Both the position numbers and the translations under genes were made by a program. Shown here piece by piece: positions 21,986 through 32,722 of a DNA stretch of 49,840 bases. The stretch lies in contig JAQUNC010000012.1 in NCBI GenBank assembly GCA_028717805.1, forward strand, positions 1 to 49,840, written 5' to 3'. The stretch is from Atribacterota bacterium. GTDB lineage: Bacteria; Atribacterota; Phoenicimicrobiia; Phoenicimicrobiales; Stramentimicrobiaceae. The notes under the pieces are model-generated. The model worked only from the letters and a program-made list of their open reading frames with translations. It was not told where the DNA came from and did no database searches. Position 1 is the stretch's first letter. Each line of letters opens with the position of its first letter.

Positions 21986-22014
21986 TTGACAAAAAAATAT
22001 TTATTACTTAGTAT
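21986..22014 (+). promoter_or_regulatory. Promoter of the T-box-controlled transporter operon
   Basis: TTGACA (21986-21991), a 17-bp spacer and TAGTAT (22009-22014) fit a sigma-70-type promoter. TATACT at 22018 is an alternative -10 element. Transcription would start about 45 bases before the T-box stem I. Confidence 0.6.
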
Positions 22015-22067
22015 TATTATACTAACAAAAATTCGCACATTTAATAATTAAATAAAAAAATCTAAAT

Positions 22068-22306
22068 CAATGGCAAAGTAGGTTGAGTCAAGTATTTCAG
22101 AGAAAGGTATAGCAGGTGTAATTACCTTAATTGACTTTTAACCCAAATAGAGTCCATTGGTAATAAAAAAGGTTGGTTGCCTTTAAAATTACAATGAGTG
22201 GGAAAAATGATTCTTCGTTTTTCCAATCAGGGTGGCACCACGGGAGCATTATCTCGCCCCTCTTTCTTGATAGATTCAATATCAAAAAGAGGTAGCGAGA
22301 TTTTTT
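22068..22306 (+). ncRNA. T-box riboswitch with intrinsic terminator
   Basis: Stem I is closed by CAATGG (22068-22073) and CCATTG (22154-22159). It holds the specifier-loop element AAAGTA (22075-22080) and the conserved apical loop GGTGTAA (22115-22121). The T-box proper is AGGGTGGCACCACGGGA at 22229-22245. It is followed by a terminator hairpin, ATCTCGC paired with GCGAGAT and CCTCTTT with AAAGAGG (22251-22301), then six T. The acceptor-reading bases are UGGC, so the cognate tRNA should have discriminator G. The specifier is not certain: AAU (22146-22148, Asn) or CAA (22144-22146, Gln) both lie opposite AAAGTA and both tRNAs normally have G73. The leader would switch on the amino-acid transporter downstream when that tRNA is uncharged. 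Confidence 0.9.
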
Positions 22307-22370: not shown

Positions 22371-23075
22371 ATGGATCAATTATATATAATCTGGAAGGGT
22401 ATACCCTCCCTATTGACAGGAACACTGGTTACCATTAATCTAACCTTATATTTTTTAGCACTGGGTTTTATACTGGGAATTATTTTAGCACTGGGGCGTG
22501 TTTATAGCCCTCCTGGCTTACAATTATTAATTATTTTACCCTTTGAACGTTTTTTTAGAGCTGTTCCAGCTCTTGTCCTATTATTTTTATTCTATTTTGG
22601 TTCCTCATTCTTTCATATTAATATAAGTGCTTTTATGGCTGCTGTCCTGGCTATGGGTTTACGCTCTGCTGCCTATCAATCTGAAATATTTAGAGGAGCA
22701 ATTCAATCCATTGGGGAAGAACAGATGAAAGCAGCTCGTTCATTAGGTATGAATACACTGCAGTCAATCAGGTATGTAATATTACCTCAAGCTTTAAGGC
22801 TTTCTATCCCTTCCTGGTCTAATGAATATGCTGTTGTTCTAAAAGACAGCTCCTTAGCTTATGCGGTAGGAGTAACAGAGCTTTTAAGACAGGGTCGATA
22901 CATTGTTGCACGTACCTTCGGTAATGCTCTGCTGGTTTATACCGTCTGTGCTCTAATATATTTTATCCTGGTTTTTAGTGGAAACCAGCTCTTAAGGATT
23001 TTGGAAGAAAAATACAAAATCCCCGGTTATGAAATAAAACAAAGTAGAAAGCAATCTGTCTTGGAAAGGATTTAA
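22371..23075 (+). CDS. Polar amino-acid ABC transporter permease (first)
   Basis: This 234-residue inner-membrane subunit is of the HisM/GlnP type, with five hydrophobic segments. The ATPase-coupling EAA loop reads [20 protein letters not shown] at about residues 122-141, followed by [19 protein letters not shown] 22371 is chosen: AGGAG lies 12 bases upstream and the domain begins there, while the upstream TTG at 22341 has no support. It is the first gene after the T-box terminator. A second permease lies two genes on, so the channel is probably a heterodimer. Confidence 0.92.
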
Positions 23076-23076
23076 C

Positions 23077-23835
23077 ATGCCTAAAGTTATTCTAAAAGTA
23101 GAAAATTTACACAAAAGCTATGGAAAGTTAACAGTTTTAAAAGGTATCTCATTTCAGGTCAACCAGGGAGAAACTACTGTTATTATCGGTCCCTCCGGTA
23201 CCGGTAAAAGCACCTTACTGACCTGTATTAATAAACTTACTCCACCTGACAAAGGTCGTATCTGGTTAGAAGAAATTGAAATAACCAATCCTAATACGGA
23301 TATTAATATAATCCGTTCCTCTATTGGTATGGTCTTTCAACATTTCAATCTTTTTACCCACCTCACCGTTTTAGATAATGTTCGCTTAGGATTAACAGTG
23401 GTGAAAAAAATACCAAAAGATAAGGCAACTAATATTGGTATAGAAAAATTGAATCTGGTAGGATTGGCAGACAAACTAAATTCCTATCCTGCTGAACTAT
23501 CCGGTGGACAGCAGCAACGTGTTTCTATTGCTCGTGCCCTGGCAATGAATCCCAAACTCATCTTATTTGATGAACCGACCTCTGCCCTGGATCCCGAATT
23601 AATTGGAGAGGTTTTAAATGTAATGATTAAACTTGCAGAAAGTGGAATGACCATGGTGGTGGTTTCTCATGAAATGGGATTTGCCCGATCAGTAGCTAAC
23701 GACATTATTTTTATGGAAAATGGTGTAATTGTGGAAGAGGGTAAACCTGATACTATGTTCCACCATTCCCAGAATCCCAGAACCAGAGAATTTTTATACA
23801 AAATTACCGAACTTTATGGAGGAAGGTCAGAGTGA
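23077..23835 (+). CDS. glnQ: Polar amino-acid ABC transporter ATPase
   Basis: This 252-residue ATPase of the GlnQ/HisP family energises the two permeases flanking it. Complete motifs are Walker [12 protein letters not shown] (about 39-49), Q-loop VFQHFNLF, signature [15 protein letters not shown], Walker [15 protein letters not shown] and switch VVSHEM. The start follows the permease stop by one base, and its last bases overlap the next gene (GTGA), so translation is coupled through the three genes. The symbol reflects family, not proven substrate. Confidence 0.94.
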
Positions 23836-24488
23836 GGTTTTTAGAACTAACCTGGAATATTTTGCCAAAATTATTGGGAGGTACCGTCATCACTATAGAA
23901 CTTACCATTATTGCCATCACCACAGGTGTCTTACTGGGAATCCCGGTTGCTCTGGGAAGAGTATATGGCTCTAAGTTAGTTTATACTATTTCTACATTTT
24001 TTGTGGAAATTATTCGTGGTACACCTTTACTTACTCAGCTTTTTATTCTCTATTTTGGTCTACCCTCTGTGGGTATAATGCTCTCACCATTGGTAGCAGC
24101 TATGATCGGAATGGGTATAAATAGTGCTGCCTATCAAGCCGAATATTTTAGAGGAGCGATTCAGGCTATCAGGAAGGAACAATTAATAGCTGCTTATTCT
24201 CTGGGGATGAAACAAATTCAGGTTATTAAACATATTGTCTTGCCACAGATGTTCCGATTGGCAATCCCTTCCTGGTCTAATGAACTGATCTATTTATTAA
24301 AATACTCTTCTATGGCATATATGATTCAGGCACCAGAAATTATGTCTCAAGGAAGGTTAATCGCCTCACGAAATTTCAGAACTTTTGAAGTTTTTATTGT
24401 AGTTGCCCTAATTTACCTTATTTTAGTTTTAGTTCTTTCCAAACTACTAGACCTGATGGAAAAAAGATTTCACATTCCAGGTCTATAA
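23832..24488 (+). CDS. Polar amino-acid ABC transporter permease (second)
   Basis: This 218-residue permease is of the HisM/GlnP family, starting with GTG within a four-base overlap with the ATPase gene. AGGAAGG lies inside the end of the upstream gene as ribosome site. The EAA loop is [20 protein letters not shown] (about 116-135), followed by [16 protein letters not shown]. It is similar to but clearly diverged from the permease at 22371-23075, consistent with an old duplication and a heterodimeric channel. Confidence 0.93.
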
Positions 24489-24587: not shown

Positions 24588-25457
24588 ATGATTAAACAAT
24601 TAGCTAAAAAAACAATTAGTTTCTTATTTATTCTTATTATGTTAGTAGCAGTCAATATGTTATCTTCTTCGGCTGCCTCAGAGAAAATTATTGTAGGAAC
24701 TTCGGCAGACTGGCCACCTTTTGAATGGGTTGATGCAAACAATAATTTTGTGGGATTTGATATGGACTTAATGAAAGTAATCGCCAAAATTCAGGATTAT
24801 GAAATAGAAATACAGGATATCGGTTTTGATTCACTTATTCCTGCCCTTCAATCTGATAGAATTGACCTAATGGCTGCTGGTGCAACCTTAACCAAAGAAC
24901 GTCTAGAAGTTGCTGATGCCTCTAACACTTATTGGTCAGGTAGCCAAGGGGTAATGGTTAAAGAAGATTCAAAATTAAATATTGCAACTGCCTTGACTGG
25001 CGGAAATGCAATTGGGGCTCAAAGAGGAACAACACAGGCTGATTGGTTGGAAGAAAACGTGGTTCAAGCAAATGTAGATATTAAATTAGAGTTATATGAA
25101 ACAAATGACTTGGGAATCATGGATTTAGTCAATGGACGTATTGATGTTTTTGTTGCTGATACTCCAGCAGCCGAAGCATTTGTCAAAAATAATCCCATCA
25201 AAATCGTCGGTACTATTAATACTGAAGAAGAGTATGTTTTCTATGTCCAAAAAGGTGATCCAAAAGGAATTCTTCCGGTAATCAATGAAGGATTAGCAAA
25301 AATTCAACAGACTCCAATCTGGGATAATTTAGTCAATGCTTACTTCATGGGAGATTTAAACAAAATTTCTGATTGTTATGCCCAATTTGGTTCATTGTTA
25401 GAGAAAGATGTAGAGGCTTTTGCTCAAAACTTGGCTGAATGCATGATGTCTGATTAA
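24588..25457 (+). CDS. Amino-acid ABC transporter substrate-binding protein
   Basis: This is a periplasmic binding protein of 289 residues (SBP_bac_3 family). A signal peptide covers about 1-31 with cleavage near SSSAAS. The mature N-terminus is KIIVGTSADWPPFEWVDANN and VGFDMDLMKVIA, the standard opening with ligand-contacting aromatic and acidic residues. AAGGAGG precedes the ATG. It closes the T-box operon and is followed by a strong hairpin. Two extra cysteines near the C-terminus (CYAQ, ECMM) are unusual and might form a disulfide. The ligand is probably Asn or Gln if the T-box reading is right. Confidence 0.93.
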   Translation: MIKQLAKKTISFLFILIMLVAVNMLSSSAASEKIIVGTSADWPPFEWVDANNNFVGFDMDLMKVIAKIQDYEIEIQDIGFDSLIPALQSDRIDLMAAGATLTKERLEVADASNTYWSGSQGVMVKEDSKLNIATALTGGNAIGAQRGTTQADWLEENVVQANVDIKLELYETNDLGIMDLVNGRIDVFVADTPAAEAFVKNNPIKIVGTINTEEEYVFYVQKGDPKGILPVINEGLAKIQQTPIWDNLVNAYFMGDLNKISDCYAQFGSLLEKDVEAFAQNLAECMMSD

Positions 25458-32461: not shown

Positions 32462-32506
32462 ACTAGGTAAAAAGAGAATAGAAAAAAATAAATAGAGTTT
32501 TAACAT

Positions 32507-32654
32507 TCATGGTTCAGAAGTGATTAAAAAGGAAAACGGTGCAAGACCGTTGCTGTCGTCGCATCTGTAATCAGCATAACCCGGTATTATTCACTGCCCA
32601 GCAGGTGGGAAGGATAATACTAAAAGGAGCTGGGAGCCAGAAGACTTGCCATGA
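32507..32654 (+). ncRNA. Cobalamin riboswitch
   Basis: A P1 helix pairs TCATGG (32507-32512) with CCATGA (32649-32654). Inside are the conserved ACGGTGCAAGACCGT hairpin (about 32536-32550), GTCGCATCTGTAATC, CACTG, GGTGGGAAGG and the B12 box AGCCAGAAGACTTGCC at 32635-32650. The order and spacing are those of adenosyl/aquo-cobalamin riboswitches. It precedes a TonB-dependent receptor gene, the classical BtuB arrangement. Confidence 0.93.
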
Positions 32655-32722
32655 TTGTCTGCTTGGGAGACCTCCGACATAGAGGGAGAGCAGGAGTAAA
32701 CAAATAGTGGTAAGTTTATTAA

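What the first reader, a model, noticed from the sequence alone, without database searches (positions are those of the whole stretch)
22068..22306. T-box controls an entire amino-acid ABC transporter; tRNA acceptor pairing points to Asn or Gln
The antiterminator acceptor-binding bases read UGGC. By the known pairing with NCCA, the cognate tRNA must have discriminator G, which excludes Leu, Ile, Lys, Met, Tyr and His and leaves Asn, Asp, Gln, Glu, Ser or Trp. The only triplets opposite the AAAGTA specifier element that fit are AAU (Asn) or CAA (Gln). T-boxes are rare outside Firmicutes-like groups, so a diderm with TonB is a notable host.
Basis: partly seen in the sequence, partly recalled or inferred. 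Interest (0 to 1): 0.55.

Follow-up and report, generated by a model that had tools for sequence, protein, structure and literature searches.

The report
Arginine-sensing tRNA switch on transporter

Summary
Window 22062-22306 is a transcriptional T-box leader (RF00230, 76.8 bits, E 5e-17; below Rfam's 93-bit cut-off, as are 9 of the genome's 11 full-length T-boxes). It precedes a permease-ATPase-permease-binding protein operon. The Asn/Gln assignment does not hold; the specifier is most likely AGA (22149-22151, arginine). AGA is in 6 of 6 orthologous transporter T-boxes and 14 of 14 homologous argC T-boxes; AAU and CAA are not kept in register. The genome's tRNA-Arg(UCU) has discriminator G73, pairing with UGGC; both tRNA-Glu have A73. 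The binding protein keeps or conservatively replaces seven of eight published arginine contacts of Thermotoga ArgBP. The host is Atribacterota; T-boxes occur in 50 of 50 genomes searched there, so the host remark is right and too modest. New member of a known kind. Side finding, more unusual: the leuS T-box carries a complete tRNA-Ala(GGC) gene between Stem I and antiterminator, in 17 of 50 Atribacterota and in many Bacillota genomes.

The parts
21986..22014 (+). candidate promoter TTGACA-17-TAGTAT
   Evidence: 10 of 12 consensus matches, but the scan found no more promoter-like sites than shuffles, so weak
22062..22264 (+). T-box leader RNA (RF00230 match)
   Evidence: 76.8 bits, E 5.4e-17
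22068..22159 (+). Stem I with AGUA (22077-22080), AG bulge (22099-22103) and distal loop GGUGUAA (22115-22121)
   Evidence: read, aligned
22149..22151 (+). specifier triplet AGA (arginine)
   Evidence: in 6 of 6 transporter and 14 of 14 argC T-boxes
22196..22226 (+). Stem III (22201-22224) with RRRxG and AA flanks
   Evidence: read; motif as described in PMC7583486 (passages)
22229..22261 (+). antiterminator with bulge UGGCACC (UGGC 22233-22236)
22251..22306 (+). intrinsic terminator hairpin and U run, overlapping the 3' half of the antiterminator
22371..23075 (+). permease subunit 1 (PAAT type; ORF can also start at TTG 22341)
   Evidence: BPD_transp_1; HEQRo_perm_3TM over cut-off
23077..23835 (+). 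ATPase subunit
   Evidence: ABC_tran; best NCBIfam GlnQ, below its cut-off
23832..24488 (+). permease subunit 2
24588..25457 (+). substrate-binding protein with arginine-type pocket
   Evidence: SBP_bac_3; TmArgBP contacts

Best explanation
A class I (transcription-attenuating) T-box leader specific for arginine. When arginine runs low, uncharged tRNA-Arg(UCU) pairs its anticodon with AGA in the Stem I specifier loop and its 3' GCCA with UGGC in the antiterminator bulge; the antiterminator forms and RNA polymerase reads into the transporter operon. When the tRNA is charged, its 3' end cannot seat, the stronger terminator forms and transcription stops before the operon. The operon imports arginine. 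Together with the related T-box before argCJBDG elsewhere in the genome, uptake and synthesis of arginine answer to one tRNA. Shown by sequence: the leader architecture, the invariant AGA, the matching tRNA and discriminator, the mutually exclusive hairpins, the arginine-type pocket. Inferred: tRNA binding, the transcriptional response and the transported substrate.
For: RF00230 over the full model; leader conserved before the same permease in G002, G003, G004, G006, G007. AGA in 6 of 6 transporter and 14 of 14 argC leaders; in four of the six transporter leaders it sits in the standard register [G/C]AAN-NNN-R that fits nine other T-boxes of the genome, each matching its downstream gene (leuS CUC, ilvB AUC, serC UCC, ilvB CUC, trpB-like UGG, archease-rtcB-serS UCC, argC AGA, hisS-asnS-aspS GAC, pheS UUC; read by eye). 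tRNA-Arg(UCU) G73 pairs with UGGC. Terminator form favoured by about 8 to 15 kcal/mol over the forced antiterminator in 6 of 6 orthologs. Binding protein keeps Asp37, Glu42, Phe76, Arg101, Gln142, Asp183 of TmArgBP, with Trp for Phe38.
Against: In the window leader and in G006 the strict register reads UAG, so AGA needs a one-base shift; read one base the other way the window gives AAU, whose tRNA-Asn also has G73. GAR overlaps AGA in all 20 leaders and is set aside only by register, by A73 and by the argC context. The fourth base of UGGN is C in some and U in other arginine T-boxes, so it is a weak discriminator. TmArgBP contact Ser131 is not matched (the alignment puts Tyr there in TmArgBP and Ala here). 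Score is below Rfam's gathering cut-off. The G009 ortholog has lost the sensor and keeps only the terminator. No expression data.
Confidence: 0.88

Rival explanations
1. Asparagine T-box: specifier AAU at 22146-22148, read by tRNA-Asn(GUU); the operon imports asparagine.
For: AAU followed by A fits the usual spacing in the window; tRNA-Asn has G73; Asn-regulated ABC transporters are tabulated in PMC2494555 (passages).
Against: At that place G002 has AAG and G007 AAA; 0 of 14 homologous argC leaders hold AAU in the loop (one search counts AAU in 5 of 6 transporter leaders, but the one in G002 lies downstream of AGA). Binding pocket is arginine-type.
Confidence: 0.06
2. Glutamine T-box: specifier CAA at 22144-22146, read by tRNA-Gln(UUG).
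For: CAA in 4 of 6 transporter leaders; both tRNA-Gln have G73; ATPase is nearest GlnQ (below cut-off).
Against: Absent in G004 and G006; lies upstream of the usual specifier place; TmArgBP, whose pocket is shared, was reported not to bind glutamine (PMC4022495 passages).
Confidence: 0.02
3. Glutamate T-box: specifier GAG/GAA overlapping AGA by two bases.
For: A GAR triplet overlaps AGA in all 20 leaders (rows); the Rfam alignment of the window places GAG near the specifier columns.
Against: Both tRNA-Glu have A73, which cannot pair with UGGC; the same loop stands before argCJBDG; register of the canonical orthologs gives AGA.
Confidence: 0.02
4. A decaying leader: the T-box no longer regulates and the operon is constitutive or silent.
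For: One-base shift in the specifier loop; G009 has lost the sensor.
Against: Stem I motifs, Stem III purines, antiterminator and terminator all intact in the window and largely conserved in six genomes.
Confidence: 0.04

Closest known systems
Class I T-box riboswitch (Rfam RF00230)
   Same: Stem I with AGUA, AG bulge and distal loop, Stem III with RRRxG/AA, UGGN antiterminator bulge, overlapping terminator, amino-acid gene downstream
   Different: Host is Atribacterota; score under the Rfam cut-off; one extra base in the specifier loop of this copy
argC T-box of the same genome and phylum (L009, L152-L168)
   Same: Homologous over the whole leader, AGA specifier, very similar Stem II/III region
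   Different: Controls arginine synthesis, not uptake; most begin the antiterminator with AGGUGG rather than AGGGUGG
T-box controlled amino-acid ABC transporters of Firmicutes (PMC2494555, PMC11477304; passages seen)
   Same: T-box before an ABC system; specifier used to predict substrate
   Different: The table passage seen in PMC2494555 has rows for Asn, Asp, His, Ile, Met, Trp and others but none for Arg; Arg T-boxes on transporters in Clostridia are recalled, from no call
Thermotoga maritima arginine-binding protein (4PSH/4PRS)
   Same: Asp37, Glu42, Phe76, Arg101, Gln142, Asp183 kept
   Different: Trp for Phe38; Ser131 contact not matched; binding not tested

Membership tests
T-box riboswitch, class I | Stem I with specifier loop, AGUA, AG bulge and distal loop | tested here: met
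T-box riboswitch, class I | Antiterminator with UGGN bulge overlapping an intrinsic terminator | tested here: met
T-box riboswitch, class I | Stem III with RRRxG and AA flanks | tested here: met
   sequence against the motif in PMC7583486 (passages)
T-box riboswitch, class I | Host tRNA whose anticodon matches the specifier and whose discriminator pairs with UGGN | tested here: met
   tRNA-Arg(UCU), G73
T-box riboswitch, class I | Rfam curated score (93 bits) | tested here: inconclusive
   76.8 bits, E 5.4e-17; 9 of 11 full-length T-boxes of this genome are also under it
T-box riboswitch, class I | tRNA-dependent antitermination | not testable with these tools
   needs a transcription assay
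Polar amino-acid ABC uptake system (PAAT) | HEQRo-type permeases, ABC ATPase, family 3 binding protein | tested here: met
Arginine-specific binding protein (TmArgBP type) | Acidic pair holding the guanidinium and the other published contacts | tested here: met
   seven of eight contacts kept or conservatively replaced; Ser131 not matched
Arginine-specific binding protein (TmArgBP type) | Binds arginine, not glutamine | not testable with these tools
   needs calorimetry

The most novel reading that the evidence does not exclude
T-box control is a native, phylum-wide way of regulating amino-acid supply in the diderm Atribacterota, with arginine uptake and synthesis under one tRNA; and in this phylum and in Bacillota the leuS T-box has taken a complete tRNA-Ala(GGC) gene into its Stem III, so that every attenuated leuS transcript is also a tRNA precursor and RNase P processing would cut the sensor from the switch.
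Probability: 0.55. Interest if true: 0.75.

Novelty: new member of a known kind. Interest (0 to 1): 0.45.

Why it matters
It assigns a substrate (arginine) to an uncharacterised transporter from its RNA switch and, independently, from its binding pocket, in a phylum known mostly from assembled environmental genomes. T-boxes in 50 of 50 Atribacterota genomes searched bear on how old T-boxes are and whether they are a Gram-positive speciality; two full-text searches for T-box with Atribacter found no paper (open-licence papers only). The case also shows that a specifier read from a single sequence can miss by a register that orthologs settle.

Tried and rejected
Rfam at gathering threshold misses the element; an E-value search on the short stretch finds it. 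Asn, Gln and Glu readings were tested against orthologs and tRNA discriminators and set aside. The wider PAAT homologs L049-L060 carry no T-box in the searched loci (0 of 12), so control seems confined to close orthologs in family f1. The four genome contigs T-boxes (7 of the 34 loci were given) have the same scores as four and were not counted again. Of 30 loci, 18 were given. Of 18 argC loci, the 4 without the core motif (L155, L156, L158, L169) were dropped before the count of 14. valS (L002) was not resolved and L012 has no Stem I; both were left out of the register calibration. Stem III pairing around the embedded tRNA was tested by shuffling each locus: most loci are not significant alone (31 loci, 4 with p under 0.03), so that pairing rests on variation seen by eye (GGUAAAU/AUUUACC, GGUAGAU/AUCUACU), not on this statistic. 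The embedded-tRNA pattern has chance hits: 12 of 76 rows are not tRNA by eye, and the reversed control pattern hit about 25 of 398 genomes by my count.

Full report
Check. The window stretch 22062-22264 matches Rfam RF00230 over the whole model, 76.8 bits, E 5.4e-17. The default search did not list it, since Rfam's cut-off is 93 bits. In the host genome (2.27 Mb, 92 contigs; the window is contig C12) the same model finds 12 places, 11 of full length; only two exceed the cut-off. So the low score is a trait of the lineage. The leader folds better than all 200 shuffles.

Host. The binding protein's nearest named relatives are Candidatus Atribacteria assemblies, 73-88% identical. The window also holds a TonB-dependent receptor, TonB, ExbB and ExbD, behind a cobalamin riboswitch. 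The diderm reading is sound. T-boxes occur in 50 of 50 genomes of the phylum that were searched, 2 to 14 each, and in 5 of 50 genomes sampled from outside it (stricter filters, E 1e-6).

Operon. Four genes follow: permease, ATPase, permease, family 3 binding protein. NCBIfam hits to named systems (GlnP, GlnQ, cystine, Lys/Arg/Orn) are all below their cut-offs, so the protein families alone do not name the substrate.

Conservation. Of 18 loci searched, five carry an orthologous T-box before the same permease (G002, G003, G004, G006, G007), which is 82-88% identical. G009, at 89%, has lost the sensor and keeps only the terminator hairpin. More distant homologs carry none (0 of 12).

Specifier. 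Nine other T-boxes of the genome were read by eye with the pattern [G/C]AAN-NNN-A, and each triplet fits its operon: leuS CUC, ilvB AUC, serC-serA UCC, ilvB CUC, trpB-like UGG, archease-rtcB-serS UCC, argCJBDG AGA, hisS-asnS-aspS GAC, pheS UUC. These gene names are my reading of the translations. The transporter leaders read: G004 GAAU-AGA-A, G003 CAAU-AGA-A, G002 CAAG-AGA-A, G007 CAAA-AGA-G, G006 GAAAU-AGA-G, window CAAAU-AGA-G. AGA is in 6 of 6, and in 14 of 14 argC leaders from relatives, with which the transporter leaders align along their length. AAU and CAA are not held in place among the orthologs.

Discriminator. All 44 tRNA matches were read. G73: Arg(UCU), Arg(UCG), Asn, Asp, Gln, Ser, Trp. 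A73: both Glu, among others. Four ends were called one base short and read by me (Arg(ACG), Arg(UCG), Glu(UUC), Leu(UAA)). No tRNA-Ile(GAU) was found. Over the eight calibrating T-boxes whose tRNA was found, the UGGN base pairs Watson-Crick in seven and as G-U in one (serC). UGGC therefore fits Arg, Asn and Gln and not Glu. TBDB uses the same criterion with wobble allowed (PMC7778990, passages).

Switch. In 6 of 6 orthologs the terminator form is about 8 to 15 kcal/mol more stable than the forced antiterminator, as expected for a default-off attenuator.

Substrate. Sequences of Thermotoga maritima ArgBP are among the best PDB matches (identity of 4PRS/4PSH from PMC4022495, passages). Its published arginine contacts map to Asp41, Trp42 (Phe in TmArgBP), Glu46, Phe80, Arg105, Gln145 and Asp191 of the window protein; Ser131 is not matched. 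These seven are the same in all eight close relatives tested (L073-L080, one position unread in L080), while two distant PAAT proteins (L081, L082) lack the first aspartate. TmArgBP is reported not to bind glutamine. This is independent of the RNA and agrees with it.

Side finding: a tRNA gene inside a T-box. The genome's best T-box (L001, 110.3 bits) stands before leuS and contains a complete tRNA-Ala(GGC), with encoded CCA and G3-U70, on the same strand between Stem I and the antiterminator. It is the only tRNA-Ala(GGC) found in the genome. Of 30 leuS loci, own genome and relatives, 29 have tRNA-Ala(GGC) upstream; the T-box core follows it in 15 of the 16 loci of families f1 and f2 and in 0 of the 14 others; in the six of these printed, a short terminator-like hairpin stands there instead, at least in outline. 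One f2 genome (L134) has lost Stem I and another (L129) the core. A pattern search found the arrangement in 17 of 50 Atribacterota genomes. In the phylum of a Peptococcaceae genome (L086) 74 of 398 genomes matched; 64 of the 76 rows end in a tRNA 3' end by eye. Of the 20 loci returned, ARAGORN finds tRNA-Ala(GGC) in 16 and LeuRS lies downstream in 16; L187 and L200 are chance, and L199 and L203 have intron-like sequence downstream (my reading). Of 11 loci given to Rfam, 8 hold a T-box over its cut-off and all 11 a tRNA. In many loci the tRNA is bracketed by a helix where Stem III should be, often with RRRxG before and AA after; shuffling tests are mostly not significant by locus. My reading, untested: the T-box terminator also ends the tRNA transcript, so attenuated leader yields tRNA-Ala. 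Full-text searches with T-box, leuS, tRNA-Ala and embedded-tRNA terms listed no paper that appeared to describe it (open-licence papers only, listings and a few passages seen).

Verdict. An arginine T-box on a probable arginine transporter: a new member of a known kind, in a host phylum where T-boxes were found in every genome searched.

Noticed in passing
L001/L122 (G000 C13:19623-19918, minus strand); L123-L137; L188-L206: Complete tRNA-Ala(GGC) gene inside the T-box leader of leuS (specifier CUC), between Stem I and antiterminator; 17 of 50 Atribacterota genomes and many Bacillota genomes. Other Atribacterota families have tRNA-Ala before leuS without the T-box core.
   Followed up: yes
L012 and L007 (G000 C56:2004-2083 and 2122-2399): Two antiterminator/terminator units in tandem before a trpB-like gene, the second without a Stem I.
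   Followed up: no
L119 (G000 C4:83000-91000): Serine T-box (UCC) before archease, RtcB RNA ligase and serS in a row: RNA-repair genes apparently under serine tRNA control.
   Followed up: partly
L208 (G009 C55:22300-24500): Ortholog of the transporter whose T-box sensor is gone and only the terminator hairpin is left.
   Followed up: partly
L129 and L134 (G016, G013): Broken leuS T-boxes: one without the antiterminator core, one without Stem I, both keeping tRNA-Ala.
   Followed up: partly
window 32493-32667: Cobalamin riboswitch (87.3 bits) before a TonB-dependent receptor, TonB, ExbB and ExbD.
   Followed up: partly
L004 (G000 C17:30511-30754): serC T-box has UGGU although tRNA-Ser has G73, a G-U pair, while the serS T-box has UGGC.
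   Followed up: no
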